Part shown: piece after piece, positions 4,541 through 22,021 of the stretch | How the letters are laid out: every line of letters begins with the position of its first letter | Numbering within the stretch: the stretch's first letter is position 1 | Virus record (IMG/VR): IMGVR_UViG_3300037488_001058 | Span: 1-30,008 of that record | DNA from: a virus | Length of the DNA: 30,008 nucleotides | Strand: one strand, 5' to 3' | Notes under the pieces: model-generated | The model's input: the letters and a program-made list of their open reading frames with translations, nothing else | What the model was told of the DNA's origin: nothing | The model's database searches: none | Translations under genes and position numbers: made by a program

Positions 4541-5062
4541 ATGAATATAGTTGGATGTGATCCCGGAGCCTTCGGAGCAATAGCTATATTGGATACCGAA
4601 ACTCGGCAGCTTACCCTCATAGATATGCCGATTATAAAAGTTAAGCGCGGGCCGCGAGTAGTTAACCAAGTAGACCCTGCTCTTTTAGCCCAAGCCCTCC
4701 TTCCACATATACATGAAAATGATCAGGCTTACGTTGAGAAAACGTGGGCCATGCCAGGGCAAGGCGTGTCCAGTTCTTTTGCGTTTGGCCGTGCGGGCGG
4801 TGTATTGGAAGGTGTCCTTGCCACTTTAGGCGCGACTGTAACGCTAGTTCCCCCTGCGACTTGGACAAAAACAATGCGGCTATTTAAGGGAAAAGACGCA
4901 AGTAGAGAACGTGCTATTGAATTATTTCCAGAACACGCTACTATGTTTTCTAGAAAGAAGGATGACGGGCGCGCCGATGCGGCGTTGCTTGCTGTTTGGG
5001 GACTAGAAAATGCCAACAAAGCGCGGAGTGAAACTCCAAGAAAACGAACGATACAGCGATAA
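4541..5062 (+). CDS. RuvC-like Holliday junction resolvase, 173 aa
   Basis: The protein has the RNase H fold pattern of RuvC-type endonucleases, which cut four-way DNA junctions and in phages resolve replication or recombination intermediates before packaging. Visible acidic catalytic candidates are D7 in GCDPGAFGA, E66 in YVEKT, and D142/D146 in the DDGRADAALLA segment. The MPGQGVSSSFAFGRAGGVLEG stretch is typical of phage RuvC proteins. There is no obvious Shine-Dalgarno before the ATG. The last 53 bases are shared with the HNH gene that starts at 5010, so the C-terminal tail after about residue 157 may differ from that of relatives without the insertion. Confidence 0.85.
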   Translation: MNIVGCDPGAFGAIAILDTETRQLTLIDMPIIKVKRGPRVVNQVDPALLAQALLPHIHENDQAYVEKTWAMPGQGVSSSFAFGRAGGVLEGVLATLGATVTLVPPATWTKTMRLFKGKDASRERAIELFPEHATMFSRKKDDGRADAALLAVWGLENANKARSETPRKRTIQR

Positions 5063-5591
5063 ATACGCTGGCTTAATAGAAAAAGGCGACGGCATATTTA
5101 GGAAGCCGTATTTATACCGAGGGAAATCGGCCAATAGATATTTTATAGAAACTAAGTGCGTCTGTGGTGCAGTAGTTTTGGCGCATTTAAGTAACTACAA
5201 AAGGTACGGCTCGGCGGTTTGTTCTGAGGAATGCCGTAAGGCAATTGTAAGTAAACCGGACGGGTCTGTTCGCAGACGCAGGGGAACTAACAAAGGCAGC
5301 ATTATAGAAAAATGCACGGGCCACCCATACGCTAAAAAAGGATACGTCCACCAACATCGCCTAGTTGTTGAGCGTGACATTGGCCGGTTCCTGACTCCGG
5401 AAGAAGTTGTTCATCATATAAATTGCGTAGACACAGACAACCGTTTGGGCAACTTGTTCGTGTGTTCTAAAAAAGAACATGCTGACGCACATAATTCTTT
5501 AATGGATTGTGTCCCTTTTTTATTAGAACATAATATCATAAAATTTGATACGGAAACGGGGAGCTACCGAATCAATGGATCATCTGTTTGA
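5010..5591 (+). CDS. HNH homing-type endonuclease, 193 aa
   Basis: A four-cysteine zinc-binding candidate (C50, C52, C71, C75) precedes an HNH core. The core has H114 and H116, then VVHHIN (H135/H136), N144 in the DTDNRLGNLF segment, and histidines at 157 and 161. This is the arrangement of HNH_3-type homing endonucleases, which make site-specific breaks and spread themselves. The gene overlaps the RuvC gene by 53 bases and the helicase gene by 17 bases, so it is wedged between them with no spare DNA. GGGGAC upstream of the ATG can serve as a ribosome site. I infer a free-standing mobile endonuclease. A general nicking role in replication is also possible. Confidence 0.85.
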   Translation: MPTKRGVKLQENERYSDKYAGLIEKGDGIFRKPYLYRGKSANRYFIETKCVCGAVVLAHLSNYKRYGSAVCSEECRKAIVSKPDGSVRRRRGTNKGSIIEKCTGHPYAKKGYVHQHRLVVERDIGRFLTPEEVVHHINCVDTDNRLGNLFVCSKKEHADAHNSLMDCVPFLLEHNIIKFDTETGSYRINGSSV

Positions 5592-6858
5592 TTACCAAAA
5601 AGTCGGCGCAGACTTTCTTTGTAAGAACCCCGCCGCATTTCTTGCGGATGAGCAGGGCCTTGGCAAAACACTTCAAGTTATCGCAGCGTGTGATACACTC
5701 GGCTTAACAAAGGTCGTCGTGATCTGCCCCGCCATCGCCAAGATTAACTGGCGTCGTGAGTTCGACAAGTGGGGTACGGTCGAGCGCGAAGTGAAGGTGT
5801 TCAGCTACGATAAGATCACGCAATCGAAGGAAGTTCGCAATGAAATCGCAAAGTTCGGGCCAGATGTCCTCGTCTTGGATGAAGTACATTATCTCAAAAA
5901 CCGTACTGCTAAGCGCACAAAGTATCTATATGGTCAGTACTGTCGTGGCGATGGGCTTGTTCGTTTCGCTGATCGTGTTTGGCTTCTTAGTGGTACTCCC
6001 ATTCCTAATAACGTCAGCGATTTCTGGACGCATCTCAAGGCTATATGGAAGTACCCTCTAAACTTTACCGAGTTTACGACCTACTTCTGCAAGACATGGT
6101 GTGGCTCATTTGGGCTACAAATTCTTGGCAACAAGACTGAACGCATGGATGAGTTCAAGACCGTGTTGAAGGCAATCATGCTCCGCCGCAAGGGCGAGGT
6201 GGTGCTGAAAGATTTACCTCCAATATGGTGGCAATCTGCACCAGTTGAGATTGATAACTGGAGCGACCGCAAGCACATCGACGATCCACGCCAAGCCGAA
6301 GCCGTAGATATGATCCTCGCGCATTCGCTTACCAATCAGGACTTGTCTTCAGAGATTGAGAGCCTTGCCCCTCACATCGCGTCACTGCGTCGCTTAACTG
6401 GTACGGCCAAGGCAGCGCCCATTGCCACACAGATAGCTGGCGAGTTGGCTGATGAGGCTTACGACAAGATTGTGATCTTCGCCTACCACACCGATGCAAT
6501 CCAGACGCTGTACGATAAGCTGAAAGACTTCAACCCAGTGGTAGTTGCAGGTGGTATGGCGACAGCCGACCGTCAAGCGGCGATTGATAACTTCCAAGAT
6601 GATCCGAAGGTGCGGGTATTCATCGGCCAGATCACCGCATGTTCTACGGCGATTACGCTGACAGCAGCCAATCAGGTGGCGTTTGTCGAGATGGATTGGG
6701 TTCCGGCGGTGAACGCGCAGGCAGCTAAGCGTTGCCACCGTATCGGCCAGACAAAGCCGGTCATCGTGCGGACGTTTGGCCTTGTTAATTCTGTAGATGA
6801 GATTGTGGCTAAGACCCTAGCCAAGAAAGCCCAGATGATTTCTGAGGCGTTAGATTAA
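5575..6858 (+). CDS. SNF2/SWI2-type superfamily 2 DNA helicase/translocase, 427 aa
   Basis: The motifs of SNF2 ATPases appear in order: Walker A DEQGLGKT (25-32), CPAIAKINW (51-59), DEVH (102-105), LSGTP (138-142), and near the C-terminus TAANQVAFVEMDW followed by HRIGQ (about 388-392). Related phage proteins remodel or anneal DNA around forks. I chose the ATG at 5575 (MDHLFDYQKVG) because the frame opens only at a weak TTG further upstream, and GGGGAG (5557-5562) lies at a suitable distance before this ATG. The start lies inside the end of the HNH gene. This is the last gene of its rightward block and is followed by a hairpin at 6861-6894. Confidence 0.9.
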   Translation: MDHLFDYQKVGADFLCKNPAAFLADEQGLGKTLQVIAACDTLGLTKVVVICPAIAKINWRREFDKWGTVEREVKVFSYDKITQSKEVRNEIAKFGPDVLVLDEVHYLKNRTAKRTKYLYGQYCRGDGLVRFADRVWLLSGTPIPNNVSDFWTHLKAIWKYPLNFTEFTTYFCKTWCGSFGLQILGNKTERMDEFKTVLKAIMLRRKGEVVLKDLPPIWWQSAPVEIDNWSDRKHIDDPRQAEAVDMILAHSLTNQDLSSEIESLAPHIASLRRLTGTAKAAPIATQIAGELADEAYDKIVIFAYHTDAIQTLYDKLKDFNPVVVAGGMATADRQAAIDNFQDDPKVRVFIGQITACSTAITLTAANQVAFVEMDWVPAVNAQAAKRCHRIGQTKPVIVRTFGLVNSVDEIVAKTLAKKAQMISEALD

Positions 6859-12049: not shown

Positions 12050-12271
12050 ATGAGCAAGATAAGATGGAAGGATGAAAAACAAACGGTAGAGTTTGTTCCA
12101 GTATTCATCATCGGTTTTGAAGAAGACTTTGAACGCGGCGTAGTATTAACAACACCCGCGTACAAAATACTAGACGAAGCTGAACCAGACTTCGCGCTCT
12201 ACGCCATAGACGCAGCGGTAGATATGCTGATGCAGAGGCGGGACGAAATTGAAAAGAGGGAATTGCACTGA
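12050..12271 (+). CDS. Small hypothetical acidic protein, 73 aa
   Basis: The ATG follows a GGGGG ribosome-site-like run at a normal distance. The protein is acidic and ends in a helical charged segment (DMLMQRRDEIEKRELH). No family is recognised. Its TGA overlaps the primase-helicase ATG by one base (TGATG), so the two are likely translated together. Confidence 0.6.
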   Translation: MSKIRWKDEKQTVEFVPVFIIGFEEDFERGVVLTTPAYKILDEAEPDFALYAIDAAVDMLMQRRDEIEKRELH

Positions 12272-14745
12272 TGAAGTTTCAAACATTGTACAAGATTGGG
12301 TTTACCGATCTCGTGTCCGTCATCCCACCGAACGCCGAGCTATCAGCCATGTCCAAAATCCAAGCGGATCAGGCGGGCAAAGCGCCGGGTCGGTTGAATG
12401 CACAAGGCACATGGGGCGGCTATGGCTGGCAGGACTACACGCCGACAGCTAATGACGTTGAGCGGTGGGACCGCAGCCATGCTAATATCGGCTTGAAGGC
12501 CAGCAAATACCCTGCGGTTGACATTGATGTTGTTAACGAGGGGCTGGCTAGGGTCATTGGTGATATGGCGGTGAAGGCATTGGGCAAAGCCCCTATGCGT
12601 ATCGGTCGTTTCCCCAAGCGGCTGTTCATGTATCGCACCGAAGAAAAGATTGGGCGTATGCAAGTGCGGTTCCGTGATGGTCGCGGGGTCGAGCAGCTTG
12701 TAGAGTTTCTGGGTGACGGGCAGCAGTATGTCATTGCAGGTATACACCCTATCACTAAGGAACCTTACAGTCTCGATGTGGACCTGACGCAACGGGGTCC
12801 GGCTGGCTTGAAGCTGGTCACGCGGGAGAAGATCGAGCGGTTCTTTGCCGACCTGACGGAGACGTTGGAGATGATGGGCTGTATCATTATCCATGCGGAT
12901 AAGACAGCGCACAAGGCAGTCGAGCGCCAGTCGGTAGACCAAGTGTCGCTTACCGCGCCAAGCATTACTCATGTAGCGGGGGCCGTGGCTGCTATCCCCA
13001 ACAAGACCGAGCATTTCCCTGACCGTGATGACTATATCCGCATGGGCTACGCCATCAAGGCGGCGTGTGGCCCTGACCATGAGCCAGATGCGTTCGAGAT
13101 ATTCGCATCTTGGGCCGAGCGTTGGGAAGACGGCGTTAACTCGCTCGATACTATCGAAGCAGACTTCGGTCGTATGCACCCGCCCTATGAGTTGGGTTGG
13201 GATTGGCTGGCGGGTAAGGCTGCGGCCTTTGGCTACAAGCGCGAGGTCGATGAGTTCGAAGTGTCGGACTTTGATGATGAAGACTTCGGCATGGTGGCGT
13301 CAGCAGGTGAGACGCCGATAGAGTACAGCGACATCGCATTGGCGCAGCGCGTTGCACGGCTGCACGTTTCGGATATTCGATTCGTTGTGGGCGGCATGGG
13401 CTGGGTGGCATGGGACGGCAACAAGTGGGCGAAGGACGTAGCAAACAAGCACCTGTCCATTGTGCGCAAGGTCTGCGCGAACGCATCGGCTGAAGCCTTG
13501 GACAAGATCGAAAGCATAGCGAAGGGCGAGCGGATCGCGCAACGTGTGGCATCATACAATGTGATTGCTAACGTGGCTAAGCTGGCTGCGGTCGAGCCGA
13601 CAATGCAGGCAACCACCGAGCAGCTAGACGCTGACATCTATATCCTCAACACCAAGTCGGGGATGGTGGACCTAAAGACGGGGGTCTTAGCAGCGCATGA
13701 CCGTTCGCGCATGTGTACTAAATGCACATCGGTTGAGGCAGACTTCAGCAAGCCAGCGCCGCAGTGGCAAGCGTTCCTGAATGAAGCTTGCAACGGTGAT
13801 AGCGAGATGATCTCTTACCTTCAAAGGTTGGCTGGCTATTCCGCAACGGGTAGTACCAAAGAGCATGTATTAGCCTTCGCACACGGCTCCGGCGGTAATG
13901 GCAAAGGGACGTTCCTTGGCGCGGTAGGAAACATCCTTGGTGATTATGCCACCGTGGCCAGTGCGGACGTGTTTCTTGCGTCGAACAACCAGAGGCATCC
14001 TACCGAGTTGGCGTCGTTGATGGGCGCTCGGCTTGTTCACGCGCAGGAGATTGACCCATCGCGCAAGTGGGACGAAGCCAAGGTGAAGTCGTTGACCGGC
14101 GGGGACAAGATCAGTGCGCGGTTCATGCGCCAGGACTTGTTTGAGTTCCAGCCGCAGTTCACGTTGGTCATCGCCGGTAACACTAAGCCAGAGATAACTA
14201 ATGTGGATGACGCCATGCGGCGGCGTATGCACCTCATACCCTTTGACACTAAGCCGGTTCGTAAGGACGTTGACTTGCCAGACAAGCTGAAAGAGGAATA
14301 CCCGGCAATTCTGGCGTGGGTTATCGAAGGCGCTAAGTCTTGGCTATTAGAGGGGTTGAACCCACCAAAGGCAGTAGTCGAAGCTACCAATGAATATCTC
14401 GCAGGAGAAGATGCATTGGCCCGCTGGGTGACTGAGCGTTGCGTGGCCTCCCCTGACCATGAGATGGGAACAACCGAAGCGTTCAATGATTTCCGCGATT
14501 GGTGCAAGGATAACAATGAGGCCAAGGGGCGTGACTGGTCGCAGCGTAAGTTCACAGCAGAGATGAAGACCCACGGCTATGACCACGCAAAGGATCGGTC
14601 GACACGAACGAAGCGTGTGTTCCGTGGTCTTGAGCTTCTCATTGGCGATGCGGACCACATGATCATCAACGCCATGATAGATGACCAAGCCGAGGATTTC
14701 TTTGGCGTGTCGATTAACTTCAACGCAGGTGAGGAGGAACTGTAA
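12271..14745 (+). CDS. Bifunctional primase-helicase (prim-pol plus D5/SF3 helicase), 824 aa
   Basis: The N-terminal third resembles a bifunctional primase/polymerase domain: VDIDV with D84 and D86, and a conserved H159 in VIAGIHP. A PriCT-like linker follows (about 250-320, with YIRMGYAIKAAC). The C-terminal half is a D5/P4-type superfamily 3 helicase: Walker A GSGGNGKGT (539-547), Walker B region GARLVHAQEID (585-595), an AGNTKP sensor (635-640) and an arginine-rich MRRRMH (649-654). It should unwind the fork and lay primers for the polymerase encoded at 8861-10768. Its stop overlaps the next start (TAATG). Confidence 0.9.
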   Translation: MKFQTLYKIGFTDLVSVIPPNAELSAMSKIQADQAGKAPGRLNAQGTWGGYGWQDYTPTANDVERWDRSHANIGLKASKYPAVDIDVVNEGLARVIGDMAVKALGKAPMRIGRFPKRLFMYRTEEKIGRMQVRFRDGRGVEQLVEFLGDGQQYVIAGIHPITKEPYSLDVDLTQRGPAGLKLVTREKIERFFADLTETLEMMGCIIIHADKTAHKAVERQSVDQVSLTAPSITHVAGAVAAIPNKTEHFPDRDDYIRMGYAIKAACGPDHEPDAFEIFASWAERWEDGVNSLDTIEADFGRMHPPYELGWDWLAGKAAAFGYKREVDEFEVSDFDDEDFGMVASAGETPIEYSDIALAQRVARLHVSDIRFVVGGMGWVAWDGNKWAKDVANKHLSIVRKVCANASAEALDKIESIAKGERIAQRVASYNVIANVAKLAAVEPTMQATTEQLDADIYILNTKSGMVDLKTGVLAAHDRSRMCTKCTSVEADFSKPAPQWQAFLNEACNGDSEMISYLQRLAGYSATGSTKEHVLAFAHGSGGNGKGTFLGAVGNILGDYATVASADVFLASNNQRHPTELASLMGARLVHAQEIDPSRKWDEAKVKSLTGGDKISARFMRQDLFEFQPQFTLVIAGNTKPEITNVDDAMRRRMHLIPFDTKPVRKDVDLPDKLKEEYPAILAWVIEGAKSWLLEGLNPPKAVVEATNEYLAGEDALARWVTERCVASPDHEMGTTEAFNDFRDWCKDNNEAKGRDWSQRKFTAEMKTHGYDHAKDRSTRTKRVFRGLELLIGDADHMIINAMIDDQAEDFFGVSINFNAGEEEL

Positions 14746-15038
14746 TGTATGGAAATGATTTTATGAGATACAAAGAGATTCGTGATGCGCTCAACGCCGA
14801 GGTAGTCAGTGACGAGGTAGTCGATGTGGTTAATAGCCCATCGCACTATAAGTCTGGTGGCATCGAGGCCATCGAAGGTATCGAAGCGTCGATGGGGCCA
14901 GAGGCATATGCGGGCTACCTCAAGGGCAACGTCATGAAATACATGTGGCGCTATGAGAGGAAGGGGAAGCCCGTTGAGGACTTGAAGAAAGCCAGGTGGT
15001 ATCTCGACCGGCTCATACAAAAAGTTGAGGGGGCATAA
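14745..15038 (+). CDS. DUF3310 family protein, 97 aa
   Basis: The core SPSHYKSGGIEAIEGIEAS, a central NVMKYMWRYERKGK and a C-terminal DLKKARWYLDRLI match the DUF3310 family. These are common in phage replication operons and often annotated as nucleotide kinase-like, though a biochemical role is not settled. A good GAGGAGG ribosome site inside the end of the primase gene supports the ATG at 14745 over the one 18 bases later. It is the last gene of the block, and its stop lies inside the loop of the terminator at 15027-15053. Confidence 0.85.
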   Translation: MYGNDFMRYKEIRDALNAEVVSDEVVDVVNSPSHYKSGGIEAIEGIEASMGPEAYAGYLKGNVMKYMWRYERKGKPVEDLKKARWYLDRLIQKVEGA

Positions 15039-15053
15039 CGCCCCCTCTTTTTT
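15027..15053. terminator. Strong bidirectional intrinsic terminator
   Basis: An 8-bp GC-rich stem (GAGGGGGC at 15027-15034, GCCCCCTC at 15040-15047) with a 5-base loop is followed by six Ts (15048-15053) on the plus strand. Read leftward, the same stem is followed by AACTTTTTG, so it can also end the leftward transcript of the 51-aa gene. It serves the convergent ends of both units. Confidence 0.9.
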
Positions 15054-15207
15054 ATAGTACGTTGAAACCGACAGGGAAAGCGTTGGCGGGTTGGTCACTC
15101 TTCACTATCTTATATTGTGAACCGCCATACCGAATACGGGCAGTGCGTTCGCTCTCGTATCTTACAACGGGCTTACCTGTCTTCAGGTTGATGACTTCGT
15201 AACTCAT
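15052..15207 (-). CDS. Small hypothetical protein, 51 aa
   Basis: I chose the ATG at 15207 because AAGGAG lies 7 bases ahead of it; an ATG two codons earlier overlaps that site too closely. The protein is beta-rich and basic (YEVINLKTGKPVVRYESE). It has its own strong promoter (15269-15298) and ends at the bidirectional terminator, so it is a single-gene transcript. No family is recognised. A strong private promoter suggests a regulatory or host-directed early protein, which is an inference. Confidence 0.7.
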   Translation of the reverse strand: MSYEVINLKTGKPVVRYESERTARIRYGGSQYKIVKSDQPANAFPVGFNVL

Positions 15208-15268
15208 ACTCATTCTCCTTCTTTTAAGAGCGGTCGGGGGCATGTTGGCCCTCTCGATCCGCGTTTGC

Positions 15269-15298
15269 ATTATAGGCACGCTGTTCCTGTTCTGTCAA
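15269..15298 (-). promoter_or_regulatory. Consensus sigma-70 promoter, leftward
   Basis: On the minus strand there is a perfect TTGACA (15298-15293) and a perfect TATAAT (15274-15269) separated by 18 bases. Transcription would start near 15262 and read the 51-aa gene. The twin AACC-N5-GGTT boxes at 15310-15345 lie directly upstream of the -35 box, where an activator or repressor could act. Confidence 0.85.
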
Positions 15299-15345: not shown

Positions 15346-15476
15346 GCAATGTAGTTTGGGGACGCATAGGAGAAAGTTGGGGACGCTTTGGGGACGCTTC
15401 GGGGACGGATAAATATGAGGACTTCTGCGGTCGGGGACGGAAGGGACACTTAAATCTGACATGATTGGCCCTAATA

Positions 15477-15518
15477 TAAGTAACAGTGTTACCCCTGTAC
15501 ATTTTACACTGTTACTTA
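15477..15518. repeat. Central inverted repeat of the array
   Basis: A 13-bp perfect inverted repeat (TAAGTAACAGTGT at 15477-15489, complement at 15506-15518) with a 16-base spacer shares its centre, 15497.5, with the outer GGGGAC array. The left half also contains the smaller palindrome GTAAC-AGT-GTTAC (15480-15492). The half-site GTAACAGTGT recurs near the serine recombinase gene at 19044-19053 and, with one change, at 19269-19278. Confidence 0.85.
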
Positions 15519-15559
15519 CTTACGCCAACAAACGGGCGTTCAAACCCGTCCCTTCCGTC

Positions 15560-15584
15560 CCCAGCCGCCTAGAAGCTGGGTTTT
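15560..15584 (+). terminator. Weak terminator-like hairpin inside the right arm
   Basis: A 6-bp stem (CCCAGC 15560-15565, GCTGGG 15575-15580) with a 9-base loop is followed by TTTT on the plus strand. It could stop rightward readthrough into the terminase small-subunit gene. It overlaps the mirrored array, so the hairpin may be incidental. Confidence 0.35.
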
Positions 15585-15651
15585 ATGTGTCCCCGATTTG
15601 TCCCCGAAGCGTCCCCGATTTTCCGTAAGCGTCCCCGATGGCAGTTTTCCG

Positions 15652-16185
15652 TTAATCGTCGTCAAAAACACCTGGCAAGTCGTCCGCATCGAGATTATGA
15701 GAGCCGACTTGCTTGGGTGGTGTGATGTCGATGATGGTGTCATCGTCGATGATGTCATGAGCATCATGAGGATTTGATGACGCCAAGTTTAGCTGCTTCA
15801 GTGCCTCAAGGTGTAGTTGGTTCACGTTCACTTGAATTGCTGTGGCTGGCTTGGCTTGGAACCTGTCAGGGTTCGCAACGCCAGCCATCCATTTGCGCGT
15901 CTCGATCTTGAGCCGGTCAGCGTTGGCGGAGTTGTTGTCTGAGGCATCGGCAATGTCCAAGCACTCATCCGCCCATTGCTCCGCCGCGATTGACCTGGCT
16001 TGCTTGAACCGCTCCTCTCGGTTCGGGTCTTTGCGTATCCAGTGGTAGAGCGATAGGTTGCTGATGTTCAGTTCACGGGCAAGGCCAGCCATTGTCAGGC
16101 CGGATGCAATCTTCTCCAACAGAACAGTCTCGCCAACCTTGTCTAAGTTGGATGCAATCGTGCGGCGTTTAATATGTCCAGCCAT
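15652..16185 (-). CDS. Terminase small subunit, Sf6 gp1-like, 177 aa
   Basis: An N-terminal helix-turn-helix (about residues 20-52, TMAGLARELNISNLSLYHWI) is followed by a helical oligomerisation region. The sequence through 66-108 (ADECLDIADASDN, then KIETRKWMAGVANPDRF) closely resembles the Sf6 gp1 family. Such proteins form rings that recognise viral DNA and start packaging by the large subunit. The acidic C-terminus (DDDTIIDI and DDLPGVFDDD) may contact the large subunit. AAAGGA precedes the ATG. It is unusual in pointing opposite to the large subunit and lying 3.8 kb from it. Its 3' end abuts the mirrored box array. Confidence 0.8.
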   Translation of the reverse strand: MAGHIKRRTIASNLDKVGETVLLEKIASGLTMAGLARELNISNLSLYHWIRKDPNREERFKQARSIAAEQWADECLDIADASDNNSANADRLKIETRKWMAGVANPDRFQAKPATAIQVNVNQLHLEALKQLNLASSNPHDAHDIIDDDTIIDITPPKQVGSHNLDADDLPGVFDDD

Positions 16186-19305: not shown

Positions 19306-19986
19306 TTGGCTGTTTATGGATACACTCGCGTCTCAACTGAAGACCAGATTGAGAACACATCGCTCGATGACCAAGCCCGCCAAATCCAAGGCATCGTGCT
19401 TACGCATAACTTGGAACTGGACCATATCTACGAAGAGCGCGGCGTCTCTGGCGGTGTTCCGCTGCTACGCCGAGAAGAAGGCTGCAAGCTGGCGTTCCTT
19501 CGCCCAGGCGATACGGTTATCGTATCGAAGCTAGACCGTATGTTCAGGGACGCACGGGACGCACTAAACGTGATTGCCGACTGGGAGACCGCGAACATCA
19601 ATCTCATCATCAATGGCTATGGCAATGTCATGGACAAGGCCAACCCGAACGGACGGTTCATGCTAGAGATCATGGCCGTCTTTTCAGGGGGAGAGCGCCG
19701 CCGTATCAGAGAACGTGTCACCGCCGGTAAGAGAGCGAAGAGTTCGCAGGGCGGATATGTCGGTGGCAAAGTGCCATTTGGCTTTAAGAAGACAGGCGTA
19801 GGCCGCAAGGCCAAGCTGCACCCAGAACCAAACGCGCAGGACGCACTAATAACGATGAAAGCCGCTCGCGTTAAAGGCCATAGCTACCGCGATATTGCTA
19901 TTATCGTAGCAAAGCGTCATGGTATCACGGTTAGTCATCAGACAATCGCACGGGTAATCAGGGGAGATAAAAATGCAGAAGTCTGA
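19306..19986 (+). CDS. Serine site-specific recombinase (resolvase/invertase type), 226 aa
   Basis: The catalytic serine is S10 in YTRVST, followed by DQARQI and the active-site arginine region SKLDRMFRDARDAL. A long helix (FMLEIMAVFSGGERRRIRER) and a C-terminal HTH (SYRDIAIIVAKRHGITVSHQ) complete the fold. These enzymes cut both strands at paired sites and invert, delete or integrate DNA. There is no large C-terminal domain, so it is not a large serine integrase. The start is TTG at 19306, justified by GGGAG at normal spacing and because the catalytic strand begins at residue 3. The end overlaps the large terminase gene by 14 bases. Confidence 0.9.
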   Translation: MAVYGYTRVSTEDQIENTSLDDQARQIQGIVLTHNLELDHIYEERGVSGGVPLLRREEGCKLAFLRPGDTVIVSKLDRMFRDARDALNVIADWETANINLIINGYGNVMDKANPNGRFMLEIMAVFSGGERRRIRERVTAGKRAKSSQGGYVGGKVPFGFKKTGVGRKAKLHPEPNAQDALITMKAARVKGHSYRDIAIIVAKRHGITVSHQTIARVIRGDKNAEV

Positions 19987-21595: not shown

Positions 21596-22021
21596 GTGGA
21601 TACTAAAACTTGTCCAACATGCGGCGAAGAGAAGCCAACTGAGAACTTCTACCGCGACAAACGCCAATGTAAATCGTGCTTACGCGACCACCAACGCCGC
21701 TACAGAGCGGAACGCCCAGACTATCACCACGGTCGAAACCTTAAACAGCGATACGGTATTACTGTCGATGAGTATGAAACCATCATTGCTAATCAGAATT
21801 CTACTTGCCCCATTTGTGAGGTAGAAATACCTGATACAATAGGGTATAAGGGAAAACGACCAAGTGTCGTTGATCATAACCATGAGACTGGTGAGGTTCG
21901 CGGTATACTTTGTTCAATGTGTAATTTGGTTCTAGGGTACGCACGAGAAAATACGCATACTCTTTACAAGGCTATTGTATACTTGAGTGAGCGTGGCGCG
22001 TATATGCCGAAAGGTAAATGA
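21596..22021 (+). CDS. Recombination endonuclease VII-like nuclease, 141 aa
   Basis: Two pairs of CxxC (C6/C9 and C25/C28) form an N-terminal zinc finger. Then comes the His-Me finger core of the T4 endonuclease VII family: C71/C74, VVDHNHETGEVRGILC with D93, H94 and H96, C106/C109 and N110. The family cuts branched DNA, and free-standing copies are often mobile. The start is GTG at 21596, supported by AGGGAG 8 bases upstream. It is placed between the terminase and portal genes, a common spot for intruding endonucleases. Confidence 0.85.
   Translation: MDTKTCPTCGEEKPTENFYRDKRQCKSCLRDHQRRYRAERPDYHHGRNLKQRYGITVDEYETIIANQNSTCPICEVEIPDTIGYKGKRPSVVDHNHETGEVRGILCSMCNLVLGYARENTHTLYKAIVYLSERGAYMPKGK

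What the first reader, a model, noticed from the sequence alone, without database searches (positions are those of the whole stretch)
15358..15636. Mirror-symmetric, helically phased ten-box DNA element beside the terminase small-subunit gene
Five GGGGAC boxes face five GTCCCC boxes. Four pairs are exact reflections about 15497.5 (15379 with 15616, 15390 with 15605, 15401 with 15594, 15433 with 15562) and the outer pair is off by one base. The intervals (21, 11, 11, 32 and 32, 11, 11, 20) are close to whole helical turns, so all boxes face one side of the DNA. This precision implies a specific protein assembly. An origin of replication is one option. A pac/cos-like site bound by a terminase small-subunit ring is another, because the gene for that subunit ends 16 bases away. 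A partition site, or a recombination site for the serine recombinase, are others. I know of no described phage element with this exact layout.
Basis: partly seen in the sequence, partly recalled or inferred. Interest (0 to 1): 0.92.

Follow-up and report, generated by a model that had tools for sequence, protein, structure and literature searches.

The report
Mirror-symmetric phage replication origin with coevolving initiator
The element is most likely the phage's replication origin: two mirrored sets of six short DNA boxes read by the tail of the phage's own primase-helicase; related phages change the box sequence and the reading residues together, so the recognition rule can be tested directly.

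Summary
There are 12 boxes with core GGGAC (six facing six), not ten. Five pairs mirror exactly about 15497.5, the outer pair is off by one base, and a 13-bp inverted repeat shares the same centre. In 74 related phage contigs the two-arm layout is kept, but the box sequence switches as a set (GGGAC, or GTGCA/GTGCC/GGGCC) with no mixing. Scanning protein columns for association with box type picks out one protein: the D5/P4-family primase-helicase (12271-14745). Its hits lie in a C-terminal winged helix: Lys774/Arg774 is a perfect discriminator, followed by 762, 763, 772, 733 and 735. TerS, the XRE protein, the recombinase and the multi-HTH protein show little association. Residue 774 predicted box type in 14 of 14 contigs not used to find the rule. 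A second primase family (AcaML1-like) shows the same kind of switch. P4 crr, phage phiadh rep_origin, Sfi21 ori and SaPI/PICI origins share the plan. Best reading: a replication origin, two mirrored iteron arms around an AT-rich centre, bound by the primase-helicase tail; a new variant of a known kind. The pac/cos and recombination readings are not supported. Binding and origin firing are inferred, not shown.

The parts
15359..15447 (+). Left arm: six GGGAC boxes at 15359, 15380, 15391, 15402, 15434, 15443 (five preceded by G, innermost by A)
   Evidence: positions kept in relatives
15548..15635 (-). Right arm: six GGGAC boxes on the - strand, first G at 15552, 15561, 15593, 15604, 15615, 15635; mirror image of the left arm
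15450..15545 (.). Centre, 61% AT (64% in 15470-15530) against 48% for the window and about 40% for the arms; candidate unwinding region
15477..15518 (.). Central inverted repeat TAAGTAACAGTGT...ACACTGTTACTTA sharing the mirror centre 15497.5; this kind of centre is present in 49 of 74 relatives, replaced in the other 25 by a different AT-rich centre
12271..14745 (+). Primase-helicase, 824 aa, TIGR01613 'phage/plasmid primase, P4 family', D5_N; proposed initiator
14443..14640 (+). C-terminal winged-helix domain of the primase (residues about 725-790); covarying residues 733, 735 (start of second helix), 762, 763 (recognition helix), 772, 774 (wing strand)
14590..14592 (+). Codon of Lys774, the residue that perfectly separates GGGAC from GTGCA/GTGCC/GGGCC origins
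14745..15038 (+). DUF3310 gene between the primase and the element; carries little box-type signal, so it serves as a linkage control
15652..16185 (-). Terminase small subunit (Sf6 family); abuts the element but does not covary with it

Best explanation
The element is the phage's replication origin. Each arm carries six iterons. The C-terminal winged-helix domain of the P4/D5-family primase-helicase reads them, with the boxes lying on one face of the DNA. Two groups of subunits, most simply two helicase hexamers in opposite orientation, assemble on the two arms, open the AT-rich centre between them, load and prime bidirectional replication. Shown here: the boxes, their mirror layout and phasing, the conservation of the layout, the concerted switching of box sequence, and its tight association with the winged-helix residues of this one protein. 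Inferred: physical binding, two opposed hexamers, melting of the centre and origin activity.
For: (1) In 74 relatives the arms keep their spacing; the left arm has six boxes in 68 of them, right arms mostly six, and the modal spacings mirror each other in both centre architectures. (2) Box type is all-or-none in every genome: 20 GGGAC, 54 GTGCA/GTGCC/GGGCC. (3) Of 12 protein families aligned, the well-sampled signal is in the primase: residue 774 mutual information 1.00 (K 18/18, R 45/45), then 762, 763, 772, 733, 735, against a mean of 0.016 per primase column. (4) At least 5 switches are forced by supported branches, 12 on the best tree, and K774 follows in all supported pairs. (5) Linkage does not explain it: DUF3310, which lies between, has the same nearest-neighbour agreement as TerS (0.75 and 0.74; 0.95 for primase 725-780). 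L003 and L005 share TerS 96%, centre 98%, DUF3310 92%, primase 92-94%, but arms only 57 and 61%. (6) Test on contigs not used to find the rule: residue 774 gave the right box type in 14 of 14. (7) Second family: 72 AcaML1-like primases, with 9-bp-spaced mirrored boxes directly downstream; a recognition-helix K/R follows TGACGGA/TGACGCA (K 38/38, R 32/32 plus two K exceptions), the best column of the protein; 6 independent pairs on supported branches, none opposite, p about 0.03. (8) All covarying residues map to the DNA-reading parts of the predicted winged helix. (9) Annotated origins of the same plan next to the same kind of primase: phiadh rep_origin, Sfi21, P4 crr. PMC6092414 reports PICI origins as two iteron sets around an AT-rich region; PMC7581432 cites SaPI Rep C-terminal recognition of downstream iterons and shows Cch2 C-terminal binding.
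Against: No binding or replication data. DUF3310 and, in this window, a small ORF separate the element from the primase gene, whereas in the AcaML1, phiadh and Sfi21 cases the origin abuts the primase. K-to-R is conservative and unlikely to set specificity alone; natural exceptions at 762, 763, 772, 733 and 735 suggest a combined effect. GC skew changes near the element, but so does gene strand, so skew is uninformative. The residues were found by scanning many columns; the 14-contig test and the second family answer this, but both rest on related sequences. The structure model has only moderate confidence (core pLDDT 81-88).
Confidence: 0.88

Rival explanations
1. Packaging (pac/cos-like) site bound by the TerS ring, whose gene ends 16 bases away.
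For: Adjacent to terS in the relatives examined; the TerS protein also gives a weak helix-turn-helix match.
Against: No TerS residue follows the box type (maximum 0.15) although TerS genomes carry both types; terS is 96% identical at DNA level between L003 and L005, which have opposite box types.
Confidence: 0.04
2. The primase binds the boxes mainly as a cis-acting control region (copy-number control, handcuffing or an operator) rather than as the start site itself, as P4 crr is a cis-required region apart from ori.
For: P4 crr, the closest layout next to an alpha-type gene, is annotated apart from P4's main ori. In relatives with an HNH gene 3' of the element, boxes lie in its upstream region.
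Against: In many relatives the element lies between convergent genes (terS and DUF3310), with no obvious promoter to control. An AT-rich centre between facing arms is the plan of annotated origins in phiadh and Sfi21.
Confidence: 0.1
3. Recombination site for the small serine recombinase (19306-19986), or a partition site.
For: Recombinase gene found in 46 loci; an inverted repeat sits at the centre.
Against: Recombinase columns do not follow box type (0.15) or centre type (0.14). No partition gene was seen among the families identified, though this was not searched systematically.
Confidence: 0.02
4. A mobile palindromic insert (MITE-like) or a chance inverted repeat.
For: The arms form a long imperfect inverted repeat.
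Against: Same position and layout in all relatives with enough sequence; box switches tied to a protein residue.
Confidence: 0.01

Closest known systems
SaPI / PICI replicons (Rep plus ori); Cch2 of SCCmec
   Same: Self-loading initiator helicase whose C-terminal domain reads short iterons in a nearby origin; two iteron sets flank an AT-rich region (PMC6092414, PMC7581432). SaPI5 Rep and Cch2 carry the same Primase_Cterm/D5_N type of domain (PMC7581432); the window protein passes TIGR01613.
   Different: Here a phage contig with six plus six strictly mirrored boxes, helically phased, a central inverted repeat, and a gene between initiator and element.
Phage P4 alpha protein and crr
   Same: P4-family primase-helicase; short repeats read by a winged helix (PMC4234260 citing Yeo 2002); crr lies just 3' of alpha with facing pairs of repeats, one pair 9 bp apart.
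   Different: P4 crr has five type 1 repeats per 120-bp unit in a ++--+ order and a separate ori; box sequence differs (GGTGAACA type). P4 alpha's solved domain was not among the listed PDB matches of the model.
Lactobacillus phage phiadh rep_origin and Streptococcus phage Sfi21 ori
   Same: Annotated origin directly downstream of a P4/D5-type primase, facing repeats around an AT-rich core.
   Different: Different box sequences; repeats not in equal, strictly mirrored sets of six.
PLE RepA/ori modules of Vibrio cholerae (PMC8263062)
   Same: Origin and initiator specificity exchanged together; cognate pairs required for replication.
   Different: RepA_N-type initiator, not a primase-helicase; only a few variants described.

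Membership tests
P4/D5-family primase-helicase replicon with cognate iteron origin | Initiator belongs to the P4-family primase (TIGR01613) | tested here: met
   301 bits against cut-off 108.7; D5_N 87 bits against 22.4
P4/D5-family primase-helicase replicon with cognate iteron origin | C-terminal winged-helix DNA-binding domain | tested here: met
   AlphaFold model of residues 690-824: helix 734-747, recognition helix 758-767, wing strands 772-774 and 782-789, core pLDDT 81-88; best PDB matches are ASFV PrimPol C-terminus and RFX DNA-binding domain, E above 0.001
P4/D5-family primase-helicase replicon with cognate iteron origin | Two facing sets of short iterons around an AT-rich region | tested here: met
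   Six plus six boxes, centre 61-64% AT
P4/D5-family primase-helicase replicon with cognate iteron origin | Origin immediately 3' of the initiator gene | tested here: inconclusive
   First box 0.61 kb after the primase stop, but DUF3310 and a small ORF lie between; abutting in the AcaML1-like family
P4/D5-family primase-helicase replicon with cognate iteron origin | Initiator binds the iterons through its C-terminal domain | not testable with these tools
   Supported only by covariation
P4/D5-family primase-helicase replicon with cognate iteron origin | Replication starts at the element | not testable with these tools
   No read-depth or nascent-strand data; GC skew uninformative
pac/cos site of an Sf6-type TerS | Site sequence tracks TerS DNA-binding residues | tested here: not met
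   Best TerS column 0.15, at residue 146 in the C-terminal tail
pac/cos site of an Sf6-type TerS | Packaging series starts at the site | not testable with these tools
   Needs virion end mapping
Serine recombinase site | Site sequence tracks recombinase DNA-binding residues | tested here: not met
   Best recombinase column 0.15
ParB/parS-like partition site | Encoded ParA/ParB pair | not tested
   No systematic search for partition genes was made

The most novel reading that the evidence does not exclude
The six boxes per arm are a stoichiometric template: one box per subunit for each of two opposed hexamers, so the origin DNA itself counts out a twelve-subunit helicase assembly. Six per arm is the modal number in both centre architectures although spacings differ.
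Probability: 0.3. Interest if true: 0.78.

Novelty: new variant of a known kind. Interest (0 to 1): 0.62.

Why it matters
Natural phages have repeatedly switched origin sequence and initiator reading residues together, giving dozens of matched pairs in an almost constant background. That makes the recognition rule of P4/D5-family primase-helicase initiators testable by simple swaps, and gives a way to look for origins in the many phages that encode such primases (over 1,300 records matched). The matched exchange resembles the PLE RepA/ori exchange, for which an origin-cutting phage nuclease is a suggested selective force (PMC8263062); whether anything similar drives the switches here is speculation.

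Tried and rejected
Distant DNA search of the phage collection with the element and its flanks found nothing. A generic k-mer scan for mirrored arrays downstream of other primases was too weak to score most loci; reading the aligned positions instead revealed the 9-bp AcaML1 boxes. phmmer of the full primase found only D5-like helicase domains in the PDB. The single genome-contig hit, L279, is a MAG contig in which the match ends at a run of Ns, so it gives no host. Primases of Mycobacterium phage Milly, Arthrobacter Peas, Synechococcus Sc-Yong805-1 and Microbacterium Lynlen abut or overlap the next gene, so there is no downstream noncoding origin there: the plan is not universal. A small 97-aa protein (15 sequences) also gave a high column value, but with very few sequences and a poor alignment (mean 0.185); not pursued. 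Papers on the Sfi21 and P4 origins are mostly not held in the library.

Full report
What is there. The interval 15358-15636 holds 12 boxes with the core GGGAC, six on the + strand to the left and six on the - strand to the right. Five pairs mirror exactly about 15497.5 and the outermost pair is off by one base. A 13-bp inverted repeat has the same centre. The centre is AT-rich, 61-64% against 48% for the window and about 40% in the arms. Dinucleotide shuffles never gave more than 6 boxes or 1 mirrored pair (5000 shuffles). Boxes lie close to whole helical turns (vector length 0.94 in the window's left arm, p about 0.01).

Relatives. The TerS protein led to 80 IMG/VR contigs. With the window, 74 sequences hold enough DNA downstream of terS to class the element. 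The layout is kept but the boxes are not the same: 20 genomes, including the window, have GGGAC; 54 have a mix of GTGCA, GTGCC and GGGCC. In no genome are the two classes mixed (one stray GGGCC in L078 apart). Left arms have six boxes in 68 of 74; right arms mostly six. Two kinds of centre occur, the TAAGTAACA inverted repeat (49) and another AT-rich sequence (25). Each has its own spacing, and in each the two arms are close to mirror images: modal 20,11,11,32,9 with 9,32,11,11,21 (or 9,31,12,11,21), and 20,21,44,10,9 with 9,10,45,20,10. In many relatives the element lies between convergent genes, terS and DUF3310, so it is not a promoter region there.

Which protein reads the boxes. For 12 protein families near the element I aligned the relatives and scored every column for mutual information with box type. 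Primase residue 774 separates the classes perfectly (K in 18 GGGAC genomes, R in 45 others). The next five primase columns are 762, 763, 772, 733 and 735, against a mean of 0.016 for the whole protein. TerS (0.15), XRE (0.11) and recombinase (0.15) do not follow. Centre type follows none of the primase columns (maximum 0.18). Natural exceptions (L045, L011, L014, L081, L075) break every column except 774, so 774 is the only perfect discriminator, but the other five probably contribute.

Is it only linkage or descent? A tree of primase residues 1-700 needs 12 switches of box type; supported branches force at least 5, and residue 774 follows in all supported pairs. L020 and L026 are identical over the compared part of residues 1-700 and differ in box type and C-terminus. 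The DUF3310 gene lies between the element and the primase C-terminus, yet its nearest neighbours share box type no more often (0.75) than those of TerS (0.74); primase 725-780 stands out at 0.95, with about 0.59 expected. L003 and L005 differ in both arms (57 and 61% identity) while the centre between them is 98% identical and most flanks are 92-96%. The arms and the reading residues change as a matched set.

Test on unused data. A later scan with the primase brought contigs not used before. In the 12 where residue 774 was parsed automatically and the element was complete enough to class, the prediction was right in 12. Two more that the parser missed were read by eye and were also right (R774, GTGCA type). 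In total 14 of 14. Contigs that end before the element could not be scored.

A second family. AcaML1-like primases (80 IMG/VR loci; the sampled C-terminal domains are 25-39% identical to the window's) have 2+2 or 3+2 boxes at 9-bp spacing, mirrored about a centre, directly after the stop codon. The best column of the whole protein is a recognition-helix K/R (GSQ[K/R]RF), which by eye aligns with window residue 759: K goes with TGACGGA-type boxes (38 of 38) and R with TGACGCA-type boxes (32 of 32); two K proteins, L109 and L130, have TGACGCA. Six independent pairs on supported branches go the same way, none the other way (p about 0.03). Acinetobacter phage 4316 has AGTGACGTT twice facing AACGTCACT twice around an AT-rich centre after its primase.

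Structure. A model of residues 690-824, built from 72 sequences, is a winged helix. Residues 733 and 735 are at the start of the second helix, 762 and 763 in the recognition helix, 772 and 774 in the first wing strand. The closest solved folds are the ASFV PrimPol C-terminus, whose entries include hexamers and dodecamers, and the RFX DNA-binding domain; none reaches E 0.001.

Known relatives. The protein is a member of TIGR01613, the P4-family primase. Phage phiadh has an annotated rep_origin after its primase with GTGTAGGGTT-type boxes facing ACTATACAC-type boxes around an AT-rich core. Sfi21 has an annotated 302-bp origin in the same place. P4 crr sits just 3' of alpha with facing repeats. 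PMC6092414 describes PICI origins as two iteron sets around an AT-rich region, immediately 3' of the initiator gene, with plasmid replication depending on the initiator. [quoted passage not shown] The kind is therefore known. New here are the strict six-plus-six mirror layout and the natural record of many matched switches; I found no earlier report of such covariation for this family in the library searched, which lacks most subscription journals.

Mechanism. Most likely the primase-helicase binds both arms through its tail, two oppositely oriented assemblies form, the AT-rich centre opens, and forks leave in both directions. Covariation supports reading of the boxes by the tail. Assembly, opening and firing are inferred. 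Six boxes per arm and hexameric D5-type helicases suggest one box per subunit; this is a hypothesis only.

Limits. No biochemistry. The plan is not universal among P4-family primases: in Milly, Peas, Sc-Yong805-1 and Lynlen there is no gap after the primase. GC skew changes near the element but follows gene strand. Host unknown.

Noticed in passing
L019, L020, L022, L025, L075 and others, about 110-850 bases after terS: All 25 relatives with the AT-rich centre carry an ORF cluster with an HNH_3 endonuclease gene just 3' of the right arm; none of the 49 with the other centre do. The HNH gene may be tied to, or have spread with, that centre; it recalls origin-directed nucleases (PMC8263062).
   Followed up: partly
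L061, L078, L079, about 300-360 bases after terS: Extra GTCCCC/GGGGAC boxes lie beyond the right arm, upstream of another small gene.
   Followed up: no
window 15052-15279: A 75-aa - strand ORF sits between the element and DUF3310, with a 21-bp direct repeat upstream (15307 and 15330); many relatives lack it.
   Followed up: no
window 19306-19986: A small serine recombinase gene overlaps the start of the terminase large-subunit gene and is found in 46 of the loci; its role in this phage is unclear.
   Followed up: no
L279 around 6184-6284: In an Anaerolineales MAG chromosome (CP070811.1) the 73% primase match runs into a stretch of Ns followed by apparently unrelated sequence; the Ns may be a gap or operator masking, so no host should be read from it.
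   Followed up: partly
window 5010-5591, 21596-22021, 5545-6858: Two further endonuclease genes (HNH_3 and endonuclease VII) and an SNF2-type helicase.
   Followed up: no
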